A stretch of 64,000 nt of DNA from Brachyspira sp. G79 (GCF_002379365.1 NZ_JQIU01000008.1:2386745-2450744); one strand, 5' to 3'. Shown: positions 14,712-57,275, counted from the first letter of the stretch. Numbers and translations are program-made. The notes: generated by a model from the letters alone, not told the origin.

Positions 14712-14734
14712 TAAACTTGCTGTATTAGATGGTT

Positions 14735-15244
14735 TTATTCTAGAGATGATTTTTTTATTTCTTCACTCTGCCCATTTAATTCTATATATTTATTGTACAT
14801 TTTATAAGCGGCATCATCATATCCGTTATTTTTATATATTTCTGCGATTTTTAATATATTGCTTTCTTTTTTTAATGGTATATTTTTTTCTTTGCTGAAA
14901 ACGTAGAAATATTGGTTTAAGCGTATTTCCATTACATTTGTCAAATGATCATATATTTTTTTTATTAAATTAGTATTTGTTATCTTGTCTAACTCATTTA
15001 TATTAATTTCCATAACTTCCGTATCTTCTTCTGCTTTTACGGTTTCAAAGTATGGTATATTTATAGCAGCATTAATCAAACCTATAATATGTCCTCTTTT
15101 ATGATATATATTATAGTTTTCTGAAAAATAATTATATGAAACAGCACTCCCTTTCGATATTATATAAAAACAATTTTTAGCATTTTCTCCATATATAAAT
15201 ATTATAGATGATTTTTTAAATTCTATTTTATTATACTTTATCAT
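14735..15244 (-). CDS. Crp/Fnr-like cyclic-nucleotide-binding-fold protein, N-terminal half of a split gene
   Basis: 169 residues, matching the first half of the 394-residue neighbour: IKYNKIEFKKSSIIFIYGEN versus INYNKINFKKSSTLFISGQY. It starts in an ATGA overlap with the stop of that gene, so the two are translationally coupled. It has one beta-roll domain (about 1-95) and a TPR-like helical segment (ILKIAEIYKNNGYDDAAYKMY). The frame ends right after a run of seven A. Re-reading one A there (slippery pattern A-AAA-AAA) enters the frame of 14079-14711 exactly in register with the homologous linker. Confidence 0.7.
   Translation of the reverse strand: MIKYNKIEFKKSSIIFIYGENAKNCFYIISKGSAVSYNYFSENYNIYHKRGHIIGLINAAINIPYFETVKAEEDTEVMEININELDKITNTNLIKKIYDHLTNVMEIRLNQYFYVFSKEKNIPLKKESNILKIAEIYKNNGYDDAAYKMYNKYIELNGQSEEIKKSSLE
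14750..14756 (-). other. Poly-A tract that breaks the regulator gene
   Basis: Seven A on the minus strand, in codons ATA AAA AAA TCA. One more A, or a -1 ribosomal slip, would fuse the 169- and 210-residue frames into a 394-like protein. Confidence 0.75.
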
Positions 15245-16425
15245 ATTTCATCTCCAAAATCTTCATTCATTTTATCAGAGTTTCTTTTAAGATATATTTC
15301 ATATTCCTTGAAAAAGCTATTAATATTACTTATTACAACATTTTTTTCATTCGTAATTTTTATGCTTTTTATTCTCTTTATTTCTCTTTCAACATAGTCA
15401 GTGTAATCTATAAATACCATACTTAATATATCATCTATGGTATGAAATAATGATATATAGTTTGTTCTTTTAAACATTAATTCTAATTTTATCAATCCTT
15501 CTATTACAGTTAAAATTTTTAGTATTACATTATTAATATTAACAGCTTTAATTCTTGCGATTGTATTGTATACCCTTGCCGACATCATTTTTATTAAATA
15601 AACTCTCACCGCTTTGTCTTCAATTATCATACTTTCAAATTCTTTTTTATCCATTACTTTTATAATAGAATCTTCTATTGCAATTGCTGTAGTCGCTATT
15701 ATTTTTTTACCTAATAAATCTTTATATCCGAAAATATCATTATCAGAATATATCATTCTCGTTATTGGTTTGTGATTAAAATAACTATATACTCCAACAA
15801 CTCCTGATTTTATCATATATATATAATTGTTTTGGCTTGTCTCTTCAAATATACAGCTTCCTTTTTTAAAATTAAAAACTCCTTTTGTTATTTCCTGCGG
15901 ACTTTCTATAGGTTCTATTTTTGATGTTATAGTTTTTATTTCTTTTGTGTTTATTTTATTTGTATTATTTTTATATATTTTTAAAGCAGCATCTGAAAAT
16001 CCTTTATCTTTATATGCTTTGAATACATCAATAATATTTAATTTTACTGTTGAATCAACTTTTGAATACTTGGATAAAAAATAATAATATTTTTTTATCC
16101 AAACTTCCATTGTATTTATTAGATGTTTATATATTTTATTCATTAATTCTACATTGTCTATTTTTTCTATTTCTCTTACATCTATTTCTATTACTTCAGT
16201 ATCTTCTATTACTTTAGAAGTTGAGAAATATGGCTCATCCATAACAGCACTTACTATTCCTATTATATCACCTTTTTTATGCTCGTATTTGAAATTATCA
16301 GCAAAATAACTTTCAAATATTACTTTGCCTTTGTTTATAATGTAAAATTTTCCGTCTGGATATTGTCCAGATATGAATAGTGTTGATGATTTTTTGAAAT
16401 TAATTTTATTATAATTTATCATCAT
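15241..16425 (-). CDS. Tandem two-domain cyclic-nucleotide-binding-fold (Crp/Fnr-like) regulator
   Basis: 394 residues with two beta-roll domains: about 1-100 (YIINKGKVIFESYFADNF, HKKGDIIGIVSAVM) and about 180-290 (FNFKKGSCIFEETSQNNYIY, YSDNDIFGYKDLLGKK). A TPR-like helix pair links them (VFKAYKDKGFSDAALKIYKN). The end (IDDILSMVFIDYTDYVEREI, then KRIKSIKI) fits a Crp-type winged helix with poor conservation. Residues that bind cAMP in Crp are not obvious, so the ligand is unknown. It is first in an operon with the split paralogue behind it. A palindromic operator candidate (16479-16491) and a 7-bp tandem repeat (16508-16604) lie just upstream, so it may regulate itself. Confidence 0.8.
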   Translation of the reverse strand: MMINYNKINFKKSSTLFISGQYPDGKFYIINKGKVIFESYFADNFKYEHKKGDIIGIVSAVMDEPYFSTSKVIEDTEVIEIDVREIEKIDNVELMNKIYKHLINTMEVWIKKYYYFLSKYSKVDSTVKLNIIDVFKAYKDKGFSDAALKIYKNNTNKINTKEIKTITSKIEPIESPQEITKGVFNFKKGSCIFEETSQNNYIYMIKSGVVGVYSYFNHKPITRMIYSDNDIFGYKDLLGKKIIATTAIAIEDSIIKVMDKKEFESMIIEDKAVRVYLIKMMSARVYNTIARIKAVNINNVILKILTVIEGLIKLELMFKRTNYISLFHTIDDILSMVFIDYTDYVEREIKRIKSIKITNEKNVVISNINSFFKEYEIYLKRNSDKMNEDFGDEI

Positions 16426-16491: not shown

Positions 16492-16507
16492 GTATCATAG
16501 ATAGATA

Positions 16508-16604
16508 GATAACGGATAACGGATAACGGATAACGGATAACGGATAACGGATAACGGATAACGGATAACGGATAACGGATAACGGATAACGGATAACGGA
16601 TAAC
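16508..16604. repeat. 7-bp tandem repeat (VNTR), 13 perfect units plus one partial
   Basis: GGATAAC is repeated 13 times without error from 16514 to 16604, after a partial GATAAC at 16508. It lies between the CRISPR array and the promoter region of the cyclic-nucleotide-binding-fold operon. The rest of 16426-16792 is AT-rich with no gene. Confidence 0.97.
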
Positions 16605-16792
16605 ACGATCATTTCTATACCATAAATTATAATTACGGCTGTATTATAATATATTTGTTTTATTATGTCAATATAAAAAATTAATGTGATTTTTAAGAGC
16701 AGTATATATTATGTATTTATTAATTATAAATATTATATTATGTTTATAATAGTAACTATATCATATTTTTTTAGTTCTTCTTGTAATTTTAA

Positions 16793-19700
16793 ATTTACAT
16801 TCCAGTATGGTTAGATTAGAAATGAAGTCAGCAGGACATGTCGTTTGTAATGTATTAACATTTACATTCCAGTATGGTTAGATTAGAAATTGCTAAAAGT
16901 AAAAATGTAAAACATATACATTGTCTATTTACATTCCAGTATGGTTAGATTAGAAATAAGAATAAATATTTTTAGTAAAAATAAGTTGTATGCATTTACA
17001 TTCCAGTATGGTTAGATTAGAAATCTTATCCATCCGTATGCTTGTCTCTTGAAGTCAGCATTTACATTCCAGTATGGTTAGATTAGAAATGTATTTAAAG
17101 CGAAAATACCAAGGATATATATAGACATTTACATTCCAGTATGGTTAGATTAGAAATTCAAATTGCCCGCCCTCGTTCCCCCTTGTCAAACGAATTTACA
17201 TTCCAGTATGGTTAGATTAGAAATTTATGAGAGAAGATTATAACGACGTGTTTGGACTAAATTTACATTCCAGTATGGTTAGATTAGAAATGGAGCATAT
17301 ATGATGAGTGTATATAACGTTATGAAGATTTACATTCCAGTATGGTTAGATTAGAAATAAATATCCTTGGATAAATGAAGCAGGCCAAAGAGCAATTTAC
17401 ATTCCAGTATGGTTAGATTAGAAATATTTAATTTGAGTTTTCTAATAATATCAATTAACAAAATTTACATTCCAGTATGGTTAGATTAGAAATCAATTTA
17501 AGGAGTATAGAATGAATATATTATATATATTTACATTCCAGTATGGTTAGATTAGAAATAAGCCGAAAAAGAGGTCGCTAATATCAATAAAAAAATATTT
17601 ACATTCCAGTATGGTTAGATTAGAAATCAAAATCAAATTGTAGAAAAATCTTTTAATACACAATATTTACATTCCAGTATGGTTAGATTAGAAATTATAG
17701 TACATACATGATTAATCAAGTATTAGAAGCAAATTTACATTCCAGTATGGTTAGATTAGAAATTTTTGATCCTGCTGTTCTATTCCCTACATTTACAGAT
17801 TTACATTCCAGTATGGTTAGATTAGAAATTTTCAAACTCAAAGTCATCAGTCGGCTGTGTTGCTAAATTTACATTCCAGTATGGTTAGATTAGAAATTAG
17901 TCAAATAGACTTTTATAAAAAGAACTTTACCAAATTTACATTCCAGTATGGTTAGATTAGAAATGAGGAATACTCGTTAAAAACTCGACATTAAGAACAA
18001 TATTTACATTCCAGTATGGTTAGATTAGAAATGAGGAATACTCGTTAAAAACTCGACATTAAGAACAATATTTACATTCCAGTATGGTTAGATTAGAAAT
18101 AGATAAACGCGTACGACAAGCGTAACAACGACCGCAATTTACATTCCAGTATGGTTAGATTAGAAATAACGAGAAGCACCTTTTCGTCTCGTTTCTTTAG
18201 GTATATTTACATTCCAGTATGGTTAGATTAGAAATAGATTTAAAAAAAGACACTGTATATCAAACAATAACATTTACATTCCAGTATGGTTAGATTAGAA
18301 ATTCTTATATATATAAAAAAATAAAGGGGTTATACTTAATTTACATTCCAGTATGGTTAGATTAGAAATTATGTTGAGAGATTGTTGAGCAGAAGAAATG
18401 CTAGTATTTACATTCCAGTATGGTTAGATTAGAAATTCGTTTAAATAATTATTTGAAGGATTAAAAATATGGATTTACATTCCAGTATGGTTAGATTAGA
18501 AATGGACTTGTAAAGACTTAAAATGTTTAAATAAATTATATTTACATTCCAGTATGGTTAGATTAGAAATTGACAATATATTTATTTGATTTATAATAAG
18601 ATTAAGATTTACATTCCAGTATGGTTAGATTAGAAATAAACTTTTTTGCTAAAAAACCGTTACTGTAATAACAATTTACATTCCAGTATGGTTAGATTAG
18701 AAATGTGATAAAAAAAATAGATGATAAAGCTGTACTAAAATTTACATTCCAGTATGGTTAGATTAGAAATGAACTGAAAGAAATTATACAAGTTTAATTG
18801 AAGTATATTTACATTCCAGTATGGTTAGATTAGAAATCAGTGTCAATCGCCGATATTAAAATCAAGTTAACATATTTACATTCCAGTATGGTTAGATTAG
18901 AAATACAACTACATACTTTACATCTAATTTTATAATCTTCATTTACATTCCAGTATGGTTAGATTAGAAATCAGGCAAAAAGGAACTAGTCCTAGTATAC
19001 CTATTCAATTTACATTCCAGTATGGTTAGATTAGAAATTATCTGAAATAGTTCAGATCGTTGCCACAGCTCTTGTATTTACATTCCAGTATGGTTAGATT
19101 AGAAATTTTTTATATGGACTACAGCCCTGATATAAAAAAATTATTTACATTCCAGTATGGTTAGATTAGAAATTATGATAGCAAAGGATATAATATTTAT
19201 AAAGAATTAATTTACATTCCAGTATGGTTAGATTAGAAATAATAAACTTTTCCCAATCTTTCCATAAAAGACGACTATTTACATTCCAGTATGGTTAGAT
19301 TAGAAATTGCGTCCTCTTCCTCTTGTGAGCACACCTGGGTTGAATTTACATTCCAGTATGGTTAGATTAGAAATCAGTTGCAGGAATTGCAGCTGGGTTT
19401 ATTGCAATAGCATTTACATTCCAGTATGGTTAGATTAGAAATATATATAGATGATGTTATAAATGAGGAGGAATAAAATTTACATTCCAGTATGGTTAGA
19501 TTAGAAATCTGGATAAAAGACAATAAAATAGTCTCTCTTAAAAAATTTACATTCCAGTATGGTTAGATTAGAAATGCATATAAAATTGAAGTCCCAAAAC
19601 TTATATTACAATTTACATTCCAGTATGGTTAGATTAGAAATTCGCGAGCGACCTTTTCGTGTTATGTCTCAAGGTCTATTTACATTCCAGTATGGTTAGA

Positions 19701-22700
19701 TTAGAAATAAAACTGGAAATAGAAGCTAAAAAGTCAATGAATATATTTACATTCCAGTATGGTTAGATTAGAAATATACAATAGATAGCATACTTTTATC
19801 ATATGATAGCAAATTTACATTCCAGTATGGTTAGATTAGAAATAATAATAGACTTTAATAATTTTTCTAATTCCTGATGATTTACATTCCAGTATGGTTA
19901 GATTAGAAATTCACATTTAGCTTGTTTGATACCTTGTACACCTTCATTTACATTCCAGTATGGTTAGATTAGAAATTATAAAGCATATAACGGCGGTTGT
20001 AAATTATTACTATTTACATTCCAGTATGGTTAGATTAGAAATTTTTATTATTTTTTTTGTCATGCTATATCCCCTAAAATTTACATTCCAGTATGGTTAG
20101 ATTAGAAATCGTTGTAGATAAAATAATAAGCACGTCTTAAAAAATATTTACATTCCAGTATGGTTAGATTAGAAATTCAAATTGCCCGCCCTCTTTTTCT
20201 CTTGTCATACGAATTTACATTCCAGTATGGTTAGATTAGAAATAGGTTAGCAATGATAACTAGTACATATAATAAAAACGATTTACATTCCAGTATGGTT
20301 AGATTAGAAATCTAAAGCACTACGTCCTATGCCTTTAATAAGCGAGCCATTTACATTCCAGTATGGTTAGATTAGAAATATGACTGTCAATGTTATCTTA
20401 GTTTATTAATACAGTATTTACATTCCAGTATGGTTAGATTAGAAATTAATGAAATATCAGAAAGCGATGAGTATTATTACAGATTTACATTCCAGTATGG
20501 TTAGATTAGAAATAACCTCATCATCAGCATTTTCAGTTTTAGCAATATAATTTACATTCCAGTATGGTTAGATTAGAAATTTTGTAAGGCTTGCCACCTG
20601 TTTTAACTCTAGGAAAATTTACATTCCAGTATGGTTAGATTAGAAATAAAAGACTAAAAAGATTAAAGTCTTTATGTAAGAACATTTACATTCCAGTATG
20701 GTTAGATTAGAAATATGGAATTAGCTTGTAATCATGATTATGATACTAATTTACATTCCAGTATGGTTAGATTAGAAATATTTTAACGAGCTTATAACTA
20801 GATTAAATAATAATAATTTACATTCCAGTATGGTTAGATTAGAAATAAGATATGATAGATTATTTAATAAAAAATATAAAGATTTACATTCCAGTATGGT
20901 TAGATTAGAAATGCATTATGCACCACCACCTAAATCACTTTCACTAGCATTTACATTCCAGTATGGTTAGATTAGAAATAGATACTGAAGACAGTTCTAA
21001 TCTATTATCATATTTATTTACATTCCAGTATGGTTAGATTAGAAATCTTTTATAAGTACCGAACGAACGCCCTACTAAAATATTTACATTCCAGTATGGT
21101 TAGATTAGAAATGCTTCTAATACTTGATTAATCATGTATGTACTATAAATTTACATTCCAGTATGGTTAGATTAGAAATTACGTCGTTATAATCTTCTCT
21201 CATAAATTGATACATATTTACATTCCAGTATGGTTAGATTAGAAATATTTTACGAGTGGTTTTACTTCAAGACAAAAAGGTAATTTACATTCCAGTATGG
21301 TTAGATTAGAAATTTAACAACCATTCTTTAGGTACTACACTATTATAAGTATTTACATTCCAGTATGGTTAGATTAGAAATATAAAATCAATAATGGTAA
21401 TATATATCTAATAGATGCATTTACATTCCAGTATGGTTAGATTAGAAATTAAATTAATTCTCTATCAAATTGTCTATCTAGTTTAATTTACATTCCAGTA
21501 TGGTTAGATTAGAAATTCAATAAGCATTGCTAAATATTTATCTGTTATAGTTATTTACATTCCAGTATGGTTAGATTAGAAATCCTTTAGACTTATATAT
21601 TGTACTCAATACACCGTCATTTACATTCCAGTATGGTTAGATTAGAAATTAATAATATAGTTGAAATATATTTAATACAAAATCTATTTACATTCCAGTA
21701 TGGTTAGATTAGAAATAAATAAATCAGCAAGGAAAAATAATAATGATTTTAGATTTACATTCCAGTATGGTTAGATTAGAAATTGTAAAGAAAATATGTA
21801 TATACTAGATTGTTTTTGATTTACATTCCAGTATGGTTAGATTAGAAATTAAGTAATCAGTATAAGCATTCATTAATTTTTGTAAATTTACATTCCAGTA
21901 TGGTTAGATTAGAAATTACATCTTGTATTTTGTTAAAGGTATATAATGTAAAATTTACATTCCAGTATGGTTAGATTAGAAATCTTCATTAAAACAAAAA
22001 GTATAATGAGTATCATCATCATTTACATTCCAGTATGGTTAGATTAGAAATACACAATCATTATTAAAGTTAGCACCAGCCATTAAATTTACATTCCAGT
22101 ATGGTTAGATTAGAAATTAAGAATAAATATTTTTAGTAAAAATAAGTTGTATGCATTTACATTCCAGTATGGTTAGATTAGAAATTGATGCATTTGCATT
22201 GTAAGATTTTCTAACATCTCAATTTACATTCCAGTATGGTTAGATTAGAAATGGGAGTGTAAAAAATGATTAATAACATATGTATAACATTTACATTCCA
22301 GTATGGTTAGATTAGAAATATAAATATATTAAATGAAGTGTACGGTGTCGGTCTTATTTACATTCCAGTATGGTTAGATTAGAAATTGATATTTCATTAT
22401 CTTTAAAAATATTTTTTGAAATATTTACATTCCAGTATGGTTAGATTAGAAATTGCTAAAAGCAAAAATGTAAAACATATACATTGTTTATTTACATTCC
22501 AGTATGGTTAGATTAGAAATAGAGGTAATTTATGACTGAAAAATATTTGAAAAAATTATTTACATTCCAGTATGGTTAGATTAGAAATTGTCTATAGAGA
22601 ATGTAAAATCTATACACGATATAAATTTACATTCCAGTATGGTTAGATTAGAAATAAGATTTCATAAAGATGTTGTATTATGATGACTTAAATTTACATT

Positions 22701-24734
22701 CCAGTATGGTTAGATTAGAAATAATCGCTAATAAATCATCATCTGCAATTTTAGCAGTATTTACATTCCAGTATGGTTAGATTAGAAATTATTATAAAAG
22801 ATATAAATATTGAAATTAGTACAGCATTTACATTCCAGTATGGTTAGATTAGAAATTATTATAAAAGATATAAATATTGAAATTAGTACAGCATTTACAT
22901 TCCAGTATGGTTAGATTAGAAATAACTATTACATTAAAATATTTAAGTGAATTAGAACTATTTACATTCCAGTATGGTTAGATTAGAAATTAAAATCAGA
23001 AGTTCTTTTATAACTATAAACTATAGTATTTACATTCCAGTATGGTTAGATTAGAAATTCAGCCTCACAACTCTGCATCTTTTTCATTACGTAAATTTAC
23101 ATTCCAGTATGGTTAGATTAGAAATCGCTAGAGTAGATATAAATATATTAAATGAAGTGTAATTTACATTCCAGTATGGTTAGATTAGAAATATATCAAT
23201 AATACTACGTTGACTATTTTGCAGTACATTTACATTCCAGTATGGTTAGATTAGAAATGTTATTAAAAAATAAAAAGAATGTGCCTGCTATTTTATTTAC
23301 ATTCCAGTATGGTTAGATTAGAAATTAAACCAACTCTTAAACCCACCTCATCAATAAATGCATTTACATTCCAGTATGGTTAGATTAGAAATGCGGTGAA
23401 TTAAGACAAAACAGATATAAAGATAAAAATTTACATTCCAGTATGGTTAGATTAGAAATATTTTCTGATGCATTCAAGCGAGCTTGTTTTAATTTATTTA
23501 CATTCCAGTATGGTTAGATTAGAAATTTGCTGTATTAAGTTGCTTAATCGTTGTCGCATTATATTTACATTCCAGTATGGTTAGATTAGAAATAAAGTTT
23601 TATAAAATATATTTAACTTTATAATATAAATTTACATTCCAGTATGGTTAGATTAGAAATCTACATTTATACGTATCTTTTCAAACAATTCTATGTTATT
23701 TACATTCCAGTATGGTTAGATTAGAAATTTGTCAATAGTAAATATAAAAAAATGAGCTAGTGATATTTACATTCCAGTATGGTTAGATTAGAAATTAATT
23801 GAATGTCTTGTAAGTCTTTGACCATTATTTCATTTACATTCCAGTATGGTTAGATTAGAAATAGATAATATAAATACTTGGTCTAATTGTATGTTAAAAT
23901 TTACATTCCAGTATGGTTAGATTAGAAATTTAGAACTCGGTTGTTTTATAGCTAGCTTATGGAATATTTACATTCCAGTATGGTTAGATTAGAAATTAGT
24001 AAATGGAATGCTGTCGGTCAATCTGCTAATGCATTTACATTCCAGTATGGTTAGATTAGAAATATAGTGAAGTAAAACAAGTTGATACATTTGTAAAGCA
24101 ATTTACATTCCAGTATGGTTAGATTAGAAATGTGTCAATCGCCGATATTAAAATCAAGTCAAAATATATTTACATTCCAGTATGGTTAGATTAGAAATAT
24201 CGATAGACTGGTCATTATCAGATTGAGCCCAAACATTTACATTCCAGTATGGTTAGATTAGAAATCTACATTAAATGATTTATTAATAGCTAGTCAAGAT
24301 AATTTACATTCCAGTATGGTTAGATTAGAAATGTATTTGTGTATAGCAAACATAAAAGCGATATGTCAGATTTACATTCCAGTATGGTTAGATTAGAAAT
24401 GACCGCCCATAGCAAACCTTTCACCGCTACTACTTATTTACATTCCAGTATGGTTAGATTAGAAATTTATTACAACACTTACTAGAGAATTTGTTTTTCA
24501 AAATTTACATTCCAGTATGGTTAGATTAGAAATCCTCCAAAAATACCAATAGCAGAATACAGTAACGATATTTACATTCCAGTATGGTTAGATTAGAAAT
24601 TAATGATTGTGTTACAAATCGTAACTTGTTAGAGTTATTTACATTCCAGTATGGTTAGATTAGAAATATACGCTTGCCTTTTGAAATCTGCCGGACTTGT
24701 AGTATTTACATTCCAGTATGGTTAGATTAGAAAT
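16793..24734 (-). CRISPR. CRISPR array, type I-B, 119 repeats and 118 spacers
   Basis: A 31-bp direct repeat that begins ATTTACATTCC and ends GGTTAGATTAGAAAT on the plus strand. I counted 119 copies, starting at 16793, 16860, 16927 and so on to 24704, with a mean period of 67 bp and spacers of about 34-37 bp. I found no changed base in any repeat. The reverse strand ends in ATGTAAAT, like the 8-base 5' handle of crRNAs in several type I-B systems. With cas2 and a leader-like stretch at the right end, this suggests transcription on the minus strand. Two adjacent identical spacers occur twice (17965-18001 with 18033-18069; 22790-22825 with 22857-22892). Several other spacers overlap or are reverse complements of one another. 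Confidence 0.98.
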
Positions 24735-24890
24735 CCGTATATCCAAAACTATTTTTCTAATTTACATATTTAATTTGCTTAAATGCACAAATACATAATG
24801 AAAAAACAGTTAATAAATATATTTTTATCAAAAATCTTCTGTCGATTAAGTAGAATTTTATAATAATTATGCTTCGACAATAGATATATT
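24735..24890 (-). promoter_or_regulatory. Probable CRISPR leader
   Basis: AT-rich, non-coding, directly between the array and cas2, the usual leader position in type I systems. At 24760 the first eight bases of the repeat (ATTTACAT) reappear 25 bases from the last full repeat. This may be a leftover of a truncated repeat plus a short spacer. If the array were instead read on the plus strand, this would be the trailer and the leader would be 16605-16792. Confidence 0.55.
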
Positions 24891-25175
24891 CTATATAAAA
24901 TTAGATGTTTTGTCAATGCCTTCTTCTACCAAAAACTCTTTATCAAGCCATTTTTCATTACGACTTTTAAAAACTATACAAGAATCTTTTTCTTTTCTTA
25001 AAATGTCAAAGAGCTTATTTTTTAATTCCAAATACTGCACTTTTGAGAGCTCCCCCTCAAAGACAGATTTTTGTATATGATTAAGATATGCCTTGCAAGT
25101 CTTAAAAACTGTTCTTGCAACTCTAGCACCATCTTCGTCATCTGTTTGTATATCATAAACTAATATTAAATACAT
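24891..25175 (-). CDS. cas2: CRISPR-associated endonuclease Cas2
   Basis: 94 residues, the usual size. It has the ferredoxin-like start MYLILVYDIQTDD, with the conserved aspartate at position 8 (after LVY), and the later strand KDSCIVFKSRN. With Cas1 it forms the complex that inserts new spacers at the leader end. It is the last gene of the cas operon, 6 bases after cas1, and faces the array. Confidence 0.95.
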   Translation of the reverse strand: MYLILVYDIQTDDEDGARVARTVFKTCKAYLNHIQKSVFEGELSKVQYLELKNKLFDILRKEKDSCIVFKSRNEKWLDKEFLVEEGIDKTSNFI

Positions 25176-25181
25176 TGTTTC

Positions 25182-26174
25182 TTACCACCATATTACAAAA
25201 GGTTTATATTCTTTTTCATTAAGCAAATGTTTAGAGATTTTATAAAGTTCTAATCTAATCAAATGCTTATATGATACATCTCTTTTCAAACTTCTATGAT
25301 TAACAGTAGCGGTAAGTCTTTTTTCGAATTCTTCCATTATTGTTTTTAATGCTTTATCTTTTAGTCTTAAAAAATTACTGTCTCTATCAAAATCATTTTC
25401 GCTTATCATCTTTTTATTTAATAATGAAAATATAAGTCTGTCAACTATTAGAGGCTTAAAAATTTCTGCTGTATCAAGTGATAATGAAAATCTTTTTACA
25501 GAAGGCTCATGCAAATAACTTATAGTAGGATTTAATTGTGTTTTATAAATCTCAGATAACACCTTTGTATAGAGTACAGAGTTCAAAAAACTTATAAGTG
25601 AGTTTATCATATTATCTGGAGGACGTTTTACTCTTTTTTCAAAATCTATTTCTTGATTAATAATTTTTTTCCAAGAGCTGTAATAAACTTTATGAATATT
25701 GCCTTCTATTCCCATTATCTCATTAATATTATAATACAAATCTATACTTGATTTTAATTTTTCTATACTTTCAATTTCTTCTTTCAAATCACGTCCTCTA
25801 TTGTCATAATATTTTAAATTTCTTAATATATTATCAGAAGCTCCATAAACAAATTTTTTAGCAAGCAATACCCTCTTATCATAATCACTGTAATGCATAA
25901 CCTGATGAACAAGTAAATCTCCAGAAACTAATTTTTCTCTAGGATAAAAACTTCCAGCATAAAACTCATAATAATTAAAAAAATGCACACATATACCAAT
26001 CTGTGATAAAAAATTAAGCAGTTTAGTATTTATTGTAACCTCAGAAAAAATATATATATCATAAATTATCTGTATGGGCAAATCTCTTTTCTCTCCGTTT
26101 GATTTGATAAACTGAAGCGTATTATCTTTTCTTTTAAGCTCCCCGCTTGAAAATAAATAATAAGATTTACTCAT
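25182..26174 (-). CDS. cas1: CRISPR-associated endonuclease Cas1, type I-B
   Basis: 330 residues, full length. It is the integrase of spacer acquisition. The metal-binding residues of the family can be seen: glutamate in NEIMGIEGNIHK (about residue 155), histidine in ISYLHEPSVKR (about 220) and the acidic SLDTAEIFKPLIVDR (about 233-247). The start MSKSYYLFSSGELKRKDNTL is typical of the I-B branch. It sits between cas4 and cas2 with short gaps, so all three adaptation genes are intact here while two interference genes are not. Confidence 0.96.
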   Translation of the reverse strand: MSKSYYLFSSGELKRKDNTLQFIKSNGEKRDLPIQIIYDIYIFSEVTINTKLLNFLSQIGICVHFFNYYEFYAGSFYPREKLVSGDLLVHQVMHYSDYDKRVLLAKKFVYGASDNILRNLKYYDNRGRDLKEEIESIEKLKSSIDLYYNINEIMGIEGNIHKVYYSSWKKIINQEIDFEKRVKRPPDNMINSLISFLNSVLYTKVLSEIYKTQLNPTISYLHEPSVKRFSLSLDTAEIFKPLIVDRLIFSLLNKKMISENDFDRDSNFLRLKDKALKTIMEEFEKRLTATVNHRSLKRDVSYKHLIRLELYKISKHLLNEKEYKPFVIWW

Positions 26175-26201
26175 AAAAATAACTCCATTAATTTATATTT
26201 T

Positions 26202-26708
26202 TTATATATAACAAAACTCATAATAAGCACATTGGTTGCAAACACTTTTATTTATAATCTCTGGTATATTTTCTCCTTTGATAATTTTATTTATAGTATC
26301 AAGTCTTTCTAAAATTTTTTCATCATCTCCTTCTTCAAGGATTACTTCTTCTTTGTATCTTTTTGACGGTATATTTAATTCTCCTTTTATATCATCAAAT
26401 CCGTACTGCTTTAATATAAATAAATAATATTTTATTTGATTAATAGCCATTTGTTTTTCTTTGTCTGATTTTTTTATTTCATGCACTACATTATTTTTTA
26501 AAAAGTCTATATTAACTTTATTATCTATCATAAAATTATGTTTTTGATTAGCATAAGTATTCTCATCAATAAACTTTCCAATCTTCACAAGCTCACTTTC
26601 TCCCTCAAAAGATAAATTATGATATGAAAGCCAAACCTTTCTCATACATAAAAAACTATATGAATAAATTGTACCTGTTACATAATTTATATTTTCTCTC
26701 ATCATCAT
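26202..26708 (-). CDS. cas4: CRISPR-associated exonuclease Cas4
   Basis: A RecB-like nuclease with an iron-sulphur cluster that trims prespacers and helps choose PAM and orientation. Seen: cysteine in SYSFLCMRKVWLSYH, the nuclease motif region FLKNNVVHEIKKSDK (E-x-K), QIKYYLFILKQYG, and the C-terminal cysteines CNQCAYYEFC. I place the start at one of three consecutive ATG codons (26708, 26705, 26702) just after the cas3 stop. A longer frame from 26747 would overlap cas3 by 35 bases and add a non-family MIKKIILFLWISF. The product is then about 166-168 residues. Confidence 0.9.
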   Translation of the reverse strand: MMMRENINYVTGTIYSYSFLCMRKVWLSYHNLSFEGESELVKIGKFIDENTYANQKHNFMIDNKVNIDFLKNNVVHEIKKSDKEKQMAINQIKYYLFILKQYGFDDIKGELNIPSKRYKEEVILEEGDDEKILERLDTINKIIKGENIPEIINKSVCNQCAYYEFCYI

Positions 26709-26712
26709 AAAA

Positions 26713-29003
26713 CTAATCCATAAGAATAGAATTATCTTTTTTATCAAGAAGTCCTAATTCTTTATTATATTCCAATTCTACAATAAATATTCTATTCGTT
26801 TTATTCCTATTTAAATTTATTTCAATACCACAATAATTTTTTATCTTTTTATAAGTTTTTATAGGTACTGTAAAGCCAAGAAGTTCATTTTTTTTCTTTA
26901 ATAGTTTTTCATACATCTCTTTACTAAGTTTATCCATATTAAGTAATTTTGTATATTCATCTATAATATTATTTTCCTCATTTATCAAATCATTATAAAT
27001 ACTTGACGGCATAACAGTAACATTATCTATTTTTCTAAAAAGCCTCTCACAATCACCTTTATCTATAGATGCGGGGGGAAGATCTTTTATTTGTTTCAAA
27101 GTATTTTTTATTTGTTTGAGATAATTACTATTTTTTAATATTTCTTCATCATAAACTTTATTAATAAAGTCTTGTTTATCTTCTTCTGTCAATATTTTAT
27201 TATCATAGCTTTTTATATAATCAACAGAGCGATTATATATTTCTTTATCATATACACTGCCGTATCCATCTCTAGTATCATAAATAAATATATTAGGCAC
27301 ATTGTTATTATATACTCTATCTCTATAAACTCTACCCATTCTTTGAAGCATACTGTCGGCTGAAGACATATCAGTATGAAGCTCATCAAAATCTATATCG
27401 AGACTTGCCTCTACTATTTGAGTTGATATCCATATACCGAAAGTTTCTTCTCTTTTGCTGTTATCATTTGGGGAAAAGTTTTTTATATCATCTTCTTTTT
27501 TCTTTCTATCTTTCATTAGAAATCTTGAATGAAGAAGATTAATATTTTTGATATTATACTCTTTTAAAATATTATAAACTTCCTGTGAATGTTTTACTGT
27601 ATTGCATATTACAAGCACTTTTTTATTTTCAGCACTTTTTATTATATTATCATAATTAAAAACATCTTCATCAATGAATTTTATAAAATGTCTTTTTATA
27701 CTCTCCCCATTTTTATCTTTTTTTATAAATGCTTTACTCGGCATTTCAAAATTAATATTATTTTCTTCCATCAGTTTTTTTACTATAGGAGGAAAAGTAG
27801 CAGTCATTATACAAAACTTACCGCCTATATCATTTATCACTTTAAGACCGTAAATTATAAAAGCTATTATTTCTGGAGTGTATGATTGTATTTCATCAAT
27901 AATTAATTTGCTGTATTTCAAAGTAGCAGGGAAAATTTCTGTACCTAAAGATTTGAATACAAAATAAAAAAGCTGGTCAATAGTACAAACGCTAAAAGGA
28001 AATGATAATTTTTTACTTTTATTATATTTATCAAGCACATCATCAATAGACAAATCATTATCAAGCATATCATTAATACTATCAGAATGTAAGAAAGTTA
28101 CTTTTTCTTTATCATAATAATTATTTTTTATTCTTTCATAAATAGCATTAATAGAAACTTTAAGAGGAAGAGTATAAAAAGTTTTGGATTTACCAGCCCA
28201 TAATAAAGCCCCTTCAGTTTTACCAATACCAGTAGAAGCAATAACTATAATATTTTTATCTTTATTTTTGAGCATATACTTTTGGCACTCATTAGGCTCA
28301 AATTTCGATAACACTTTTTTAGAAGCATCATCGCTTTCTATCTCTATATAATCATCATAAGCACTAGCCGCATAATCTATTTTGTTTAGCATTCCTTTTA
28401 TAATAATATAATTTTTCCAAATATCATATGATGGATTATAATTTTCTTTTATAACATTCATAGACACGCCAAGATATTTGCATTTAAGTTTATCATCATA
28501 GTATTGTTTATAAAATGAAATATCTTTTTCAATTATTTTTTTTATATCAGATGCACTTATTTCCAAGCCATTATTATTTAAAGCCTTTCTTGTATGATGA
28601 TTATAAACGGCACTTGCTAATGCCTTTATTTCATTTTCAGAAAATTTCTTTTCAAGTTCATTAATATTTAAAAAAGCACAGCTTAAAATTCCATGCGGAA
28701 CTTCATCAATATTTAATTCTTTATATAATTTTTCTAATTCATTATTATATTCATCAAATTCAAAATTTTTATCTATACTTTTGTAAATTTTTTTTGAAAT
28801 CTTGAATTCATTTTTCCTAAATCATGAGTTTCTAATGATATTTTTATAAGCTCTAATTCTTTTTCAGTAAAATATTTTTTATACAAAGTATTAAAATCTT
28901 CAAATAGCCTTATAAGATTTTTTGTATGTTTTTCAATACTTTCTGTATTATAAGAATTATTATATTTATTGCTTTTTGCCAAAAAATCTTCTTTTTTAAT
29001 CAT
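26713..29003 (-). pseudogene. cas3: CRISPR-associated helicase/nuclease Cas3, frame broken at a poly-A tract
   Basis: Cas3 unwinds and degrades DNA marked by Cascade. It is encoded in two frames. The first (29003-28773, 76 residues) has the start of the HD nuclease domain with ETHDLGKMNSRFQKKF. The second (617-residue frame at 26713-28566) is open from about 28787 and continues the HD domain with VPHGILSCAFLN and SAVYNHHTRKA. It then has the helicase: STGIGKTEGALLW (Walker A), LIIDEIQSYTPE (DEAD-like box), CIMTATFPP and QRMGRVYRDR. The break is at A8 (28788-28795). One extra A, or a -1 slip on A-AAA-AAA, restores about 760 residues, a normal length. It overlaps the cas5 stop by an ATGA. Without rescue, no complete Cas3 can be made. 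Confidence 0.85.
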
Positions 29004-29740
29004 GCTAAAAATAAACCTAATTTACTTTCTTTTTCCTGAATAACTTCTTTTTTAAAAGTTATGACACTTCCTTTATTTATATACTTTGCCTTAACTTTTT
29101 CTTTCCAATAACGTATATTAGTTTTTTTATTAATATCAAAAACCTTATTCAAATTATAAACAGTACCTATAAGCTCTTCATTATTTCTTATATTATCAAT
29201 CATACTATAAGGCATATAAGCATCATAAAACATTTCTATAACATCAGTTTTTTCTGTTTCTACAATGCTTACATTATCAATTCTTAAAATATCCTCATGA
29301 CGCCCCAAAGCTGGATATACACAAGGGTTTTTAAGTCCTTTTAATATAAAATCAAATAAACTTTCATCTTCAGGTACAATATGAATAATTAAATTAACAT
29401 CAACTATCACTTCAGCATATCCAAGTCCTTTAGTAATCCCGTCAAAACTTCCATCAGGATTTTTTACTTTTAATTGATGTCTTTGAGGGTCATATTTTAT
29501 GCCAAAAAAATACCTAGTATATAAATCAGTTAGCGAACTCTTTGTCTCTCCTTGAATACTTACTTTCATAGGCATATATTCTCCGCTTTTACAGCTGCAA
29601 ACTTTGTGAATCATTCCTATAACTGTAGAGTATGGCGGAAGTTTAAAACTTTCCTGAAATTGTATGCTTGACGGTCTTTTATAATTTGGCATATTTTGAT
29701 AGCATTCTATTTTTATTGCTTTTGTTATATTGTCATACAT
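29000..29740 (-). CDS. cas5: CRISPR-associated protein Cas5, type I-B
   Basis: 246 residues, an RRM-fold Cascade subunit that holds the 5' handle of the crRNA. The N-terminal block QFQESFKLPPYSTVIGMIHK is the usual Cas5 start of I-B, and GRHEDILRIDNVSIVETE follows near residue 155. It overlaps the end of cas7 by 8 bases and the start of the cas3 frame by 4 bases, which indicates tight coupling. The frame appears intact. Confidence 0.93.
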   Translation of the reverse strand: MYDNITKAIKIECYQNMPNYKRPSSIQFQESFKLPPYSTVIGMIHKVCSCKSGEYMPMKVSIQGETKSSLTDLYTRYFFGIKYDPQRHQLKVKNPDGSFDGITKGLGYAEVIVDVNLIIHIVPEDESLFDFILKGLKNPCVYPALGRHEDILRIDNVSIVETEKTDVIEMFYDAYMPYSMIDNIRNNEELIGTVYNLNKVFDINKKTNIRYWKEKVKAKYINKGSVITFKKEVIQEKESKLGLFLA

Positions 29741-30626
29741 AGTATTCGTCGACCTTTTTAGATAATTCGTCTATAAAATATGATACAGTTTTTGCATCCA
29801 ACTCTTTTTTTATATCTTCAGTATTTGAAAATATTGAATCTACCAATCCGCATATAGTGTTACTTTTTATTTCGCTGTCCAAATCAAGAACATCTTTTAT
29901 AGTTTTTATTTCCAAATTGTTTTTATTAACTTTTAGTCTGTTTTCAAAGAAAGGATTTTTAATATTATAAACTCCGCCTATTATAAATAAAGGACTTAAA
30001 TTTTCTCTTCTTCCTCTTATATCTCTATATAAAGTTTTTAATATTTTTAAAAGTTCTTTAACTCTTTTTGCTTTTTCTTTATTATCTATTTCCTGTGTTT
30101 CTTTGTTATTTTCTTTATCTTTTATAATTTCATCTATTCCCACTTTATCCAAATCAATGGTAATAGTATATGCATAGTATGACTTATGTATCTCACTTTG
30201 AGCAATAGCATTATCCATAGCCCCTCTTTTAGCAAGTGCCATATTAGTAAGAAAATCCAAATCAGAATTATAACTTTCCAAAGCAACAGCATTACTCAAT
30301 CGTACAACTGCATTTCTAGTATTTGAAGAACCATTAACACTGTTTTTTCCTGTTTTCATGTATCCGAAGAAATCTATTTCTGGATATTCTTTTATAGAAG
30401 CATCTTTTTCAAACTGCACAACTTTATCAGCATTAGAAACTTTTGTATTATCCCAGCCTAATTGATTTATAATATTATATCTTAATGCCTGTCTTGATAT
30501 ATAGCTGTAACTGTTGCCGTCTCCTCTGCTTAATTTTTTTAATGAACTTATATTTCCAAAACTCTCTCCATAGTTTGCACTTTCTGCTTCAAATATTATA
30601 CTTAATGTTAAACCTTTATTTTCCAT
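29733..30626 (-). CDS. cas7: CRISPR-associated protein Cas7 (Cst2/DevR type), type I-B
   Basis: 297 residues. It forms the Cascade backbone that coats the crRNA spacer. The start LTLSIIFEAESANYGESFGN, then SRGDGNSYSYISRQALRYNI (about 35-54), is characteristic of the Cst2/DevR branch. Also seen are RNAVVRLSNAVALESYN and a conserved FIGG-like segment PLFIIGGVYNIKNPFF. An RBS-like AAGGAG lies 8-10 bases before the ATG. It lies between cas8 and cas5, and the frame appears intact. Confidence 0.94.
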   Translation of the reverse strand: MENKGLTLSIIFEAESANYGESFGNISSLKKLSRGDGNSYSYISRQALRYNIINQLGWDNTKVSNADKVVQFEKDASIKEYPEIDFFGYMKTGKNSVNGSSNTRNAVVRLSNAVALESYNSDLDFLTNMALAKRGAMDNAIAQSEIHKSYYAYTITIDLDKVGIDEIIKDKENNKETQEIDNKEKAKRVKELLKILKTLYRDIRGRRENLSPLFIIGGVYNIKNPFFENRLKVNKNNLEIKTIKDVLDLDSEIKSNTICGLVDSIFSNTEDIKKELDAKTVSYFIDELSKKVDEYYV

Positions 30627-30648
30627 TTTTTATTCTCCTTAGAATTAT

Positions 30649-32404
30649 TTAATTATCTTTTTTATTATTTTTACTGCTGTCATCATCATAGAATGAACCT
30701 TTAAGTCCTAGTATATAAGCATTTCCTATTACTTTAAACTCTTCATCACTTTTAAAAATATTTAGAAATATACTTGGTATGCTTAAATTCATTCCAGCAT
30801 AAAGTCTTGTGATATTCCCTAAAAATAAATCTCTGTTTGAAGTATGAACATAGTTTATTAGCTGATAAACTAAACCTCTCAATTTATTATCAGCTTCTTT
30901 ATTTTGCTCGCTATTTAAATTGGCACTGCTGTTTGCCCCAATTAATTTAGCTCTTATTTCATTGCCGTTTTTATAGGCTATATATGCTAAATCAAATTGT
31001 TTTTGCATATTATTATCCTCCTTCAAAAATATAATATCTTTTGCTATTTGTATTTTTAGTATATTAAATATTGTATTTAATATAAATTTATTATCTTCTA
31101 TTTTTAGAAGTTTAAATATTAAGCTCCATTGATTTCTAAAATTAAAAATATTTTCCAAACATTCTCTATAAATATCAATATAGTAATCATCTGTAATTTT
31201 TATTGCTTTAATTTTTGATATATTCGTTAATTCTTTTTTCATTGACTCAATAATTTGAAGAGAATCTTTACCTATGGTGTTAAATAAATAGTGATTTTTA
31301 TCTCTTACTATAACCTGAATAGATTTTAACTCTTTAGTTTTTTCTGAAAGTATTCTTCTAATTATTTCATTATATACTGTGTATGTTTTATTATCTTCAT
31401 TATTTGCAAAATCTATTTTTTTGTTCATATTTATTAAAGTTTCTATGCTGTCATTTTGATTAACAAAAAGCATTAAGTTAGACATATCTATAAAACCTAA
31501 AGGAGAGCATGCATATATATAATTGCATAAAGCACATATAAAGCTGTCAGCATTATAATTCCAAAAGGCGGATTTTTTTCTATTAGTATCAACACCAACC
31601 TCAAATAAAAAAGTAGTATCAATATCTCTATTTATACTTTCATTACATACTATGCAGTTATAATTAAACTTCTTCTTATTGGTAATTAATTCTTTTAAAG
31701 GTTCTTCAAAAGATTTGTAAAACATTTCTTTTATATCCTTTTTAGAATTGGCAGGAAGTAAAAAGGCTTTATTTTCCCAAAAAGGATTTATTTTAGTATA
31801 CATTATATTTTTCATTAAAAGAGTATCTCTTACTTCTTTGCTATTTTCAAAATCTGATTTTATCTCTTTTAAATAATTTTTAATATGTTCTGTATTAGTA
31901 TTTTTTAATTTTATTATTTCTTTTATTTTTTCTATATTATTTTGTATATTTATTGAGATACCGCTTTTTTACTAAAGTATCTAAACCTGTTTTTATACTT
32001 GCTGCTGAAAAATAATCTATTATATTTTTTATATCATCTTTAAAATCTTTATTAGTATCTTTGTCATTTAATATAATATCTATTTTTTTAATGCTTTCTG
32101 ATATATTAGTTTTATCTGAAAATTTTTTTATCATAGTGTCAATGTACATTTGAGATAAATCAGTATTAAGTAAAAACTCTTTTCTTACAAATAAAGTTTG
32201 CCCTTCATAATAAAAATCTTTTTTGTCATCTAAACTTGTACCTTTATGAGCATTAACTTCTTCTAAAACTTCAATAAAACCTATAACTCCTGCATTAAAA
32301 AGAAAAGTATCAAGATTAATTTCAAAATATTCTTCTTCAATGTTATTATTTTGATTATATTCTAAATTTAATTCATGCTGACTATATTTTTTTGTTTTTG
32401 TCAT
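30649..32404 (-). pseudogene. cas8: Type I-B large subunit Cas8 (Cst1-like, CXXC-CXXC), frame broken at a poly-A tract
   Basis: The large Cascade subunit that should recognise the PAM. Frame one (32404-31937, 155 residues) starts properly behind AAGGAA. Frame two (388 residues from an internal ATG at 31815 to 30649) is actually open from 31968, with KSGISINIQNNIEKIKEIIK before the annotated-looking start. The first frame ends KTGLDTLVKKRYLNKYTK, while losing one A from A6 (31965-31970) gives LVKSGISINIQ and one protein of about 580 residues. The second part has CIVCNES and CALCNY, the paired CXXC motifs of the Cst1 group. Order with cas6 and cas7 fits. An intact product needs a frame correction. 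Confidence 0.82.
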
Positions 32405-32431
32405 AATAAAAATTCCTTAAATAAAAAAATA

Positions 32432-33190
32432 TTATAAAACTTCAAATAGTCCGAAACCCTCGCTTCTTCTGCTGCCTATACCTGTTTTGTAGAGATTGTT
32501 TAGTAGGTTAATGTTGCCTTCCAAACAGAATTTGCCGTAAGAGACATTTATTAACAATTCTTTGAAAGGTACTGCTGTTGTTTTAGATTCTTCCTGTATA
32601 ATATTACCGTTACTGTCTGTTAGATTTAATGGGGTCAATTTTATTTGAGAGCTTTCAAAATCAAACTCTTTTGCAAGCCTTTCTACTGATTGATTGAGAA
32701 TATCATTAAAATTATCATCTTTGAATGTTACATATATATCTTTATTTGTCTCTCTGTTATGATCGCGTAATACTAATGGGCTTAAAAACTTTATTATTAT
32801 TTTATTTTGTTTTATAGGCTTTTCATTTTGCATAGTTATTTTTTTTAATGTCATAATTATTTGGCTTTTTGTATTTTCATCTTTAGGATATTTTTTATTT
32901 AGCATATTATTAAAAGAATTATAAAGCTCTATAAATAATTGATTATCAAATATAGAAAAAGTTACATTTATATATCTGCTTGAAAGTTCTATATTATCAT
33001 TATTGATTTTAGCATCAGGCAAAAATACTCCGAATGTAAATGCCTTCATTTTTGTGTTATCTTTATAAAGTATATCGTATGTATTTTGTGAATAAATTTT
33101 TAATGCATTTTTAATGAAGCTTATGATTGTTAATCTGTATTCTTTGCTTATTATGTTATTTTCAAGTTCAAAATTAAGATTTATACGCAT
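32432..33190 (-). CDS. cas6: CRISPR-associated endoribonuclease Cas6
   Basis: 252 residues. It cuts the repeat RNA to release mature crRNAs. The start MRINLNFELENNIISKEYR and the glycine-rich C-terminal loop YKTGIGSRRSEGFGLFEVL fit the family. A central FLSPLVLRDHNRETNKDIYV holds a candidate catalytic histidine. It is the first gene of the operon, about 50 bases after the predicted transcription start. The frame is intact, so crRNA processing should be possible even if interference is impaired. Confidence 0.93.
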   Translation of the reverse strand: MRINLNFELENNIISKEYRLTIISFIKNALKIYSQNTYDILYKDNTKMKAFTFGVFLPDAKINNDNIELSSRYINVTFSIFDNQLFIELYNSFNNMLNKKYPKDENTKSQIIMTLKKITMQNEKPIKQNKIIIKFLSPLVLRDHNRETNKDIYVTFKDDNFNDILNQSVERLAKEFDFESSQIKLTPLNLTDSNGNIIQEESKTTAVPFKELLINVSYGKFCLEGNINLLNNLYKTGIGSRRSEGFGLFEVL

Positions 33191-56166: not shown

Positions 56167-57275
56167 ATGTCTAATTATACTATAGCAGAAGTGGATTTAT
56201 CAATATTAAAGAACAATATTGAAATTATACGTTCTATAGCAAACGGAGTAAAATTACTAAATATAGTAAAGGCTGATGCATATGGGCATGGTATAGCAGA
56301 GATTTCAAAGGCTTCAGAAAAATTTGGGGCAGATGCTTTGGGAGTTGCCACAGTAGAAGAGGGTATAAAAATAAGAGAAGCAGGAGTTAAACTTCCTATA
56401 ATTGTCCTGTTTCAGCATTTTAAATATGAAGCAGAATTAGCATGTAAGTATGATTTAATTCCTATTATAAGTAATGACGAATGTTTGGAGTATTATGACA
56501 GATATTTAAAAAAATACGGCGGTTCTTTGAAATTATATATAAAAGTAGATACTGGACTTAACAGAATGGGGGCAAGACCTGAAGACGTTTTGGACTTGGC
56601 TAAAAAAGTTTTATCTTACAGTACTTTAAGTATAGAAGGTATAAATACACATTATGCAGCCGCGGATATGAATGATGATTATTCCATTGAATTTACAAAA
56701 AGACAGATAGAGATTTTTAATGGTGTAATAGGCACTTTAAAAAATAATGGGATAGTAATAAATAATGCTCATACTGCCAATTCTGCTGCTTTGGTATCAT
56801 ATAAAAATACATATTTTGATATGGTAAGAGCTGGTATTATATTATATGGATATATTTGTGATGACTCTTATGATTTGGGTATTAAACCTATACTCAATTT
56901 GAAATCAAGAGTGCTTTTAATTAGAAAAATAAAAAAGGGGAAAGTATTTCATATGGCATGACATGGACAGCTGACAGAGATACTAATATAGCGGTTGTGC
57001 CAATAGGTTATGCAGATGGAGTATCAAGGAAATTATCTAATAATTGGGAGGTAAAAATTAATGGCAGATATTATCCTTTACGCGGAAGAGTATGTATGGA
57101 TTCTATCATTATAGATATAGGTAATAATGATATCAAAACTGAAGATGAAGTTTTGATATTTGGTAATGATAAAAGGCTTAATGCAAATACTTTGGCTAAA
57201 CGAATAGACAGTATAAGTCATGAAGTATTAGTTAATATAGGAGAGAGAGTTACTAGAGTTTATAAAAATGGTTGA
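56167..57275 (+). pseudogene. alr: Alanine racemase, frame broken at A6-G4
   Basis: PLP enzyme making D-alanine for peptidoglycan. The first frame (56167-56961) has the PLP-lysine motif NIVKADAYGHG (about 36-46), KVDTGLNRMGARPED and NTHYAAAD. It ends in KKGKVFHMA. The second frame is open from the same point and reads GESISYGMTWTADRDTNIAV, then VPIGYADGVSRKLS and RVCMDSIIIDIG to 57275. Family proteins read ...KKGESISYG..., so the gene is one unit of about 368 residues. One A is missing in the run at 56931-56936. The site A-AAA-AAG is also a strong -1 slippery heptamer, and the shift would land in the right frame. The alanine symporter gene follows. Confidence 0.88.

What the first reader, a model, noticed from the sequence alone, without database searches (positions are those of the whole stretch)
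16793..24734. Very large, apparently error-free CRISPR array next to a partly broken interference machine
119 repeats with no base change seen and 118 spacers imply that repeats are recent or actively homogenised. The adaptation genes (cas4, cas1, cas2) and cas6 are intact, but cas8 and cas3 are out of frame at poly-A tracts. Either the system still works through slippage or read error, or it has recently lost interference while keeping its memory.
Basis: partly seen in the sequence, partly recalled or inferred. Interest (0 to 1): 0.85.

Follow-up and report, generated by a model that had tools for sequence, protein, structure and literature searches.

The report
Spirochaete CRISPR memory of single-stranded-DNA phages
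The gut spirochaete Brachyspira carries a large type I-B CRISPR immune memory whose supposed breakage is probably an assembly error, and whose stored records point to tiny single-stranded-DNA phages (microviruses) as natural enemies of spirochaetes, a link previously regarded as doubtful.

Summary
The array is real: 119 identical 31-nt repeats and 118 spacers at 16793-24734, beside a type I-B cas operon. The rest of the interpretation changes. (1) Uniform repeats are usual here: sister arrays show leader-copied blocks, and a congener has 163 repeats, nearly all identical. What is odd is that the degenerate terminal repeat seen in relatives is missing, as a distal deletion would leave. (2) The cas3 and cas8 frameshifts are in the sequence, but the same assembly also splits SMC, alanine racemase and YbeY, mostly by one-base losses in A/T runs. 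They are therefore most likely assembly errors; both sides of each shift are under purifying selection. (3) No spacer was found to match a resident prophage in 26 Brachyspira genomes. Instead 9 of 118 spacers match microvirus proteins strongly (score >=42), against 0 of 183 spacers from control arrays; 8 of the 9 best nucleotide matches carry a CC PAM. A second Brachyspira array has 25 of 147. Several protospacers were captured repeatedly, some from diverged variants. The CRISPR system is ordinary; the new result is strong evidence that spirochaetes host microviruses, a link a 2022 survey found unconvincing (PMC9239249).

The parts
16793..24734 (-). CRISPR array, 119 identical 31-nt repeats, 118 spacers; crRNA strand is minus, newest spacer (118) at 24668
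   Evidence: strand fixed by leader position and by PAM side
16737..16792 (.). distal junction: 37-39 nt of spacer-like, non-homologous DNA between the flank conserved with B. murdochii and the first repeat; no degenerate terminal repeat (inferred distal deletion)
   Evidence: alignment with murdochii distal end; degenerate terminal repeats in relatives
24735..24890 (-). leader; the ~90 bp next to the array are identical to B. murdochii
24891..25175 (-). cas2 (I-B)
25182..26174 (-). cas1 (I-B, TIGR03641)
   Evidence: only cas1 in the genome
26202..26747 (-). cas4 (start codon uncertain)
26713..28566 (-). cas3 helicase part (downstream of frameshift)
   Evidence: only cas3 in the genome
28788..28795 (-). 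A8 tract at which cas3 changes frame; separates the HD segment (about 28796-29003) from the helicase
29000..29740 (-). cas5b
29733..30626 (-). cas7b (Cst2/DevR)
30649..31815 (-). cas8b, 3' part (388 aa; frame stays open to about 31964)
31964..31973 (-). site of cas8b frame change (A6 run followed by GCGG)
31937..32404 (-). cas8b, 5' part (155 aa)
32432..33190 (-). cas6b
16824..16859 (-). spacer 1: microvirus VP1 (same site as spacers 4 and 118)
17025..17059 (-). spacer 4: microvirus VP1, 89% nt to MG945859
17091..17126 (-). spacer 5: microvirus VP4 (replication initiator), 92% nt, PAM CCA
17225..17260 (-). spacer 7: microvirus VP1, overlaps spacer 66 on the opposite strand, PAM CCA
17292..17394 (-). 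spacers 8 and 9: microvirus small ORF and VP1, PAM CCA
19241..19276 (-). spacer 37: gokushovirus-type VP1 (second lineage), PAM CCC
21180..21215 (-). spacer 66: microvirus VP1, 92% nt, PAM CCA
24668..24703 (-). spacer 118 (newest): microvirus VP1, same site as spacers 1 and 4
56167..57275 (+). control: alanine racemase also split (56167-56961 and 56958-57275) in this assembly

Best explanation
This is an ordinary, probably working type I-B CRISPR-Cas system. Cas1-Cas2-Cas4 insert CCN-flanked pieces of invader DNA at the leader (24735) and copy the first repeat each time; Cas6 cuts the transcript; Cas8b-Cas7-Cas5 carry the guide; Cas3 degrades the target. Repeats are identical because every one descends recently from the same leader-end repeat and the old, decayed end has been deleted. 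The two frameshifts are most likely residual length errors of the assembly. A sizeable part of the memory (at least 9, probably 15-17 of 118 spacers) is directed against ssDNA microviruses of two or more lineages, whose capsid (VP1) and replication (VP4) genes were sampled repeatedly, some again from diverged variants. Shown: array, gene content, PAM, targets, recurrent sites, widespread frameshifts in this assembly. Inferred: that crRNAs are made, that interference works, that the distal end was deleted.
For: Repeats copied as blocks in sister arrays; near-uniform 163-repeat array in a congener; leader ~90 bp identical to B. murdochii; dN/dS 0.04-0.29 in all cas genes and on both sides of both shifts. 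Genes intact in murdochii but shifted mid-gene here: about 11 non-cas plus cas3 and cas8 of 224, against 3-4 of 231 in reverse, mostly one-base losses in A/T runs, including SMC, alanine racemase and YbeY. Microvirus: nt matches up to 92% where shuffles reach 69%; 8 of the 9 best nt matches have CC at the PAM (CC frequency 0.0275); translated score >=42 in 9/118 own and 25/147 G018 spacers against 0/183 control and 0/47 murdochii spacers. Overlapping or re-captured protospacers. No prophage target in 26 genomes; no microvirus VP1 in any Brachyspira genome.
Against: No reads were available; two shifts in one 8-kb operon is slightly more than the assembly-wide rate predicts (0.40 expected, P about 0.06), and the cas8 shift is a gain, not the usual homopolymer loss. 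No exact protospacer was found; matched viruses are relatives (75-92% nt). About 100 spacers have no assigned target. No expression data.
Confidence: 0.78

Rival explanations
1. Interference was really and recently lost by frameshifts in cas8 and cas3 while adaptation genes and memory remain.
For: Both shifts are in the assembled sequence; relatives have intact copies; no second cas3 or cas1 in the genome could substitute; two shifts in one operon is marginally more than chance.
Against: The same kind of shift splits SMC, alanine racemase and YbeY in the same assembly; purifying selection on both sides of each shift; newest spacer re-targets the same viral site as the oldest; no self-target found that would favour inactivation.
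Confidence: 0.17
2. Expression survives real frameshifts by slippage at the homopolymers (programmed or transcriptional).
For: The cas3 shift lies at an A8 tract, where RNA polymerase slippage is possible (general knowledge).
Against: No relative has a shift at either place, so it is not a conserved device; the cas8 site is A6 followed by GCGG, a weak slippage site.
Confidence: 0.05
3. Repeats are kept identical by gene conversion or another active homogenising process.
For: 119 of 119 identical.
Against: Sister array keeps a sharp boundary between a 30-repeat and a 17-repeat variant block, and decayed terminal repeats survive in relatives; leader copying plus youth explains uniformity without conversion.
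Confidence: 0.08
4. The microvirus matches are chance or reflect a shared host of another phylum (arrays acquired by transfer).
For: Matches are not exact; AT-rich sequences give weak false hits.
Against: Controls of 183 natural spacers give none at score 42; PAM enrichment about 1e-11; two species (own, G018) with unrelated spacer sets agree, and G015 adds weaker support; repeat, leader and cas operon are native to the genus.
Confidence: 0.04

Closest known systems
Type I-B (Tneap-like) CRISPR-Cas, e.g. Clostridioides difficile (PMC8406132) and B. murdochii 56-150 (PMC3035287, PMC3532143)
   Same: Gene set cas6-cas8b-cas7-cas5-cas3-cas4-cas1-cas2, about 30-nt repeats with 36-nt spacers, CCN protospacer motif (C. 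difficile adaptation uses CCN)
   Different: Longer array with no decayed terminal repeat; cas8 and cas3 split in this assembly; many spacers against ssDNA microviruses
Array of the 163-repeat Brachyspira MAG (G018, loci L080 and L157)
   Same: Near-identical repeat, near-uniform long array, 33 of 147 spacers match microvirus proteins at score >=36
   Different: Intact cas genes; decayed repeats present at the distal end
Gokushovirus-type and related Microviridae (targets): MG945859, MG945857, MG945866, MG945865 (mink feces), MG945844 (chimpanzee feces)
   Same: VP1/VP4/VP2 gene content; carry the protospacers
   Different: Their VP1 are 36-51% identical to that of MG945859 and the next records <=29%, i.e. 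a separate clade without assigned host in these records

Membership tests
Type I-B CRISPR-Cas | cas1, cas2, cas4 adaptation genes of I-B type | tested here: met
   Cas1b TIGR03641 455.8 bits over cut-off; Cas2, Cas4b models
Type I-B CRISPR-Cas | Cas8b, Cas7b (Cst2/DevR), Cas5b, Cas6b effector genes | tested here: met
   Models match; Cas8b in two pieces, each matching PDLC02050
Type I-B CRISPR-Cas | single Cas3 with HD nuclease and helicase in one frame | tested here: inconclusive
   Split at the A8 tract in this assembly; intact in 8 relatives; probably an assembly error, reads needed
Type I-B CRISPR-Cas | CCN-type PAM on the 5' side of the protospacer | tested here: met
   8 of 9 best nucleotide matches
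Type I-B CRISPR-Cas | crRNA processing and interference activity | not testable with these tools
   needs RNA sequencing and plasmid or phage challenge
Primed adaptation | repeated spacers from the same or diverged protospacer | tested here: met
   7 related non-identical pairs at score >=18, 14 spacers; shuffles give only 0-4 pairs, none above 15
Primed adaptation | strand and distance bias around the priming protospacer | tested here: inconclusive
   too few mapped protospacers on a 5-kb circular genome
Microviridae as targets | spacers encode conserved VP1/VP4 motifs with correct PAM | tested here: met
Resident prophage targets (inactive system) | spacers match an intact prophage in the same genome | tested here: not met
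   no match beyond the array itself; the search scored only its top candidates per genome

The most novel reading that the evidence does not exclude
Brachyspira spirochaetes are regular natural hosts of at least two microvirus lineages, one of them a distinct VP1 clade (MG945859 and relatives), and their type I-B arrays return repeatedly to the same capsid and Rep-gene sites as these viruses diverge, giving a time-ordered record of a spirochaete-ssDNA phage arms race.
Probability: 0.85. Interest if true: 0.6.

Novelty: new member of a known kind. Interest (0 to 1): 0.5.

Why it matters
The CRISPR locus itself is a normal type I-B system, and the apparent 'memory without interference' conflict is probably an assembly artefact, which is a caution for other genome assemblies of AT-rich bacteria. 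The target analysis matters more. A 2022 survey of microviruses found links to Spirochaetes but set them aside as single contigs in fragmented metagenome bins (PMC9239249), and no paper in the held library presents Brachyspira as a microvirus host (judged from the titles and abstracts of the four papers naming both). Spacer, PAM and recurrence evidence from at least two Brachyspira species now makes that link testable and gives a host for a clade of gut microviruses that had none in these records.

Tried and rejected
IMG/VR scans with VP1 of MG945859, its 5-member alignment, a degenerate capsid motif and a 17-nt core of spacers 6/51 gave no close virus (the four 17-mer hits fit chance). Weak matches of spacers 29, 61, 73, 78, 84 and 102 to Brachyspira chromosomes were rejected: no CC PAM where it could be checked (spacers 29, 61, 73) and chance-level identity for the rest. 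Hits of the array to Staphylococcus, Enterococcus and other phages at E about 0.2 rejected as AT-rich noise, as murdochii and G015 control arrays gave the same kind. Plasmid hits likewise. A codon-position argument for PAM escape (PAM on Pro/Trp codons) was looked at and dropped: background already favours those positions.

Full report
Observation. The array is present exactly as reported: 119 copies of a 31-nt repeat, all identical, with 118 spacers of 34-37 nt (80 of them 36 nt), at 16793-24734. It is the only place in the 3.29-Mb, 14-contig genome with this repeat. Two pairs of adjacent spacers are identical (18/19, 90/91).

Setting. To the right, on the minus strand, lie cas2, cas1, cas4, cas3, cas5, cas7, cas8 and cas6 (24891-33190). 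Models name them as subtype I-B (Cas1b, Cas7b Cst2/DevR, Cas5b, Cas8b, Cas6b, Cas3b). The nearest genome held, G010, has the genome length published for B. murdochii 56-150 (3,241,804 bp, PMC3035287) and is about 92% identical in shared DNA, so the window is taken to be from a sister species. The DNA between cas2 and the array is the leader: its ~90 bp next to the array are identical in the two species, while the operon as a whole is about 88% identical. The leader is therefore at 24735, spacer 118 is the newest and spacer 1 the oldest left.

Uniform repeats. In B. murdochii the 48 repeats fall into a leader-side block of 30, a distal block of 17 and one decayed terminal repeat. In G018, a Brachyspira MAG, 145 of 148 repeats in the main piece are identical and the three variants sit at or near the distal end (163 repeats in all). 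This is what copying of the leader-end repeat produces; gene conversion would blur the block boundary. So uniformity is a family trait plus youth: zero changes in 3658 bases gives an upper bound of 0.0008 per site, while synonymous divergence of the cas genes from murdochii is roughly 0.1-0.3. What is unusual is that the decayed terminal repeat is absent: the conserved flank stops, 37-39 nt of unrelated spacer-like DNA follow, and the first perfect repeat begins. A deletion of the old end explains it (inferred).

The frameshifts. Both are in the sequence. cas3 loses a base at an A8 tract, separating the HD segment from the helicase; cas8 gains one beside an A6 run. Nine Brachyspira genomes in all have a match over the cas3 cut-off, and the other eight have it open (764-796 aa); the relatives with full-length cas8 have it open at 584-601 aa. 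The genome has no second cas1 or cas3. To judge whether the shifts are real, 375 kb of this genome were compared with 1.22 Mb of B. murdochii. Of 224 genes open in murdochii, 18 were flagged here; discarding, by eye, shifts confined to gene ends or compensated, about 13 are broken mid-gene (11 without cas3 and cas8). The reverse count was 6 flagged of 231, one of them the cas8 fragment itself, leaving 3-4. Most of the breaks here are one-base losses in A or T runs. The victims include SMC, alanine racemase (56167-57275) and YbeY, identified by Pfam. Three such genes broken in the same manner point to homopolymer-length errors of the assembly. Two hits in the 8-kb operon against 0.40 expected (P about 0.06) is not strong evidence for anything special. 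dN/dS is 0.07-0.20 on both sides of both shifts, so the proteins were under selection until very recently or still are. Reads would settle it; none were available.

What the spacers remember. No spacer matched a prophage or other chromosomal site convincingly in 26 Brachyspira genomes, although that search scored only its top candidates per genome. The only strong matches there were other arrays: spacer 80 is identical over 37 nt to murdochii spacer 19 and was also captured here as spacer 3; spacer 107 overlaps murdochii spacer 39 by 30 nt with different ends. Against phage records, the array hit Microviridae. MG945859, a 5.4-kb virus from mink feces, carries matches to spacers 1, 4, 5, 7, 8, 66 and 118 at 75-92% identity, where shuffled spacers reach 69%. 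In crRNA orientation 8 of the 9 best matches of the array to microviruses have CC at the PAM position, CCA most often; CC occurs at 2.75% of positions in that virus. CCN is the motif used in adaptation by the I-B system of C. difficile (PMC8406132).

Translated comparison extends this. Spacers 1, 4, 5, 7, 9, 20, 21, 33, 37, 43, 53, 66 and 118 encode recognisable VP1 or VP4 motifs with a CC PAM in at least one reference virus, and spacers 38, 50 and 67 encode VP1-like motifs without it; the weaker ones (scores 33-41) are individually uncertain. As a control, 183 natural spacers from other arrays (four non-Brachyspira loci and nine spacers of B. catarrhinii) gave none at score 42 or more, the 47 murdochii spacers none, this array 9 and G018 25 of 147 (Fisher P 2e-4 and 5e-10). 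Shuffled spacers give about one match per 118 at score 36, where this array has 15. Spacer 37 points to a second, gokushovirus-type lineage.

Repeated capture. Several sites were taken more than once: spacers 1, 4 and 118 overlap in VP1; 7 and 66 overlap on opposite strands; 2/85, 6/51 and 31/110 are diverged versions of one protospacer; 14/65 and 83/95 overlap. Seven related, non-identical pairs involve 14 spacers. This fits re-acquisition from diverging viruses, as primed adaptation would give, which needs a working Cascade and Cas3; small target genomes with few PAM sites (94 CCA sites in MG945859) would also raise recurrence without priming. Naive and primed uptake cannot be separated here.

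Mechanism, with status. Leader-end acquisition with CCN selection by Cas1-Cas2-Cas4 (supported by anatomy and PAM); crRNA made by Cas6 from the minus strand (inferred); interference on the double-stranded replicative form of ssDNA phages by Cas8b-Cas7-Cas5 and Cas3 (inferred); memory partly devoted to microviruses (shown by sequence); frameshifts probably artefactual (supported, not proven).

Novelty. CRISPR in Brachyspira has been reported for B. murdochii (PMC3532143, PMC3035287). A broad microvirus survey mentions Spirochaetes links but judges them unreliable (PMC9239249), and none of the four papers in the held library that name both Brachyspira and Microviridae appears to propose the link (titles and abstracts only). 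Within that limited library the host link appears new. The CRISPR system itself is a new member of a known kind.

Noticed in passing
window 56167-57275; L110 6244-9140; L121 2552-2988: Alanine racemase, SMC and YbeY are each split by one-base length changes, so protein annotation of this assembly will contain many false pseudogenes.
   Followed up: yes
window 16494-16611: A heptamer tandem repeat (GATAACG) lies just distal of the array and is shared with B. murdochii with a different neighbouring GATA run; a possible strain-typing marker.
   Followed up: no
window 14079-16425: Genes resembling CRP/FNR-type regulators (by eye, not tested) flank the distal end of the array here and in murdochii; one is also split at an A-run.
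   Followed up: partly
L157 (G018 array) spacers 91, 108, 137: Three spacers encode nearly the same KTKRPHYH motif, resembling the HUH active-site region of the microvirus replication initiator, a repeatedly sampled site.
   Followed up: partly
G022, G020:C96, G002:C7, G012, G021, G004: Other Brachyspira genomes carry cas1 genes that score quite differently, suggesting further CRISPR systems in the genus.
   Followed up: no
L032 (Pectinatus cerevisiiphilus): A 144-repeat array beside a Cas1 64% identical to this one, another very long array.
   Followed up: no
window 22118-22154 (spacer 80) and 16958-16993 (spacer 3): The same protospacer was captured twice here and once in B. murdochii (identical 37 nt); its source is unknown.
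   Followed up: partly
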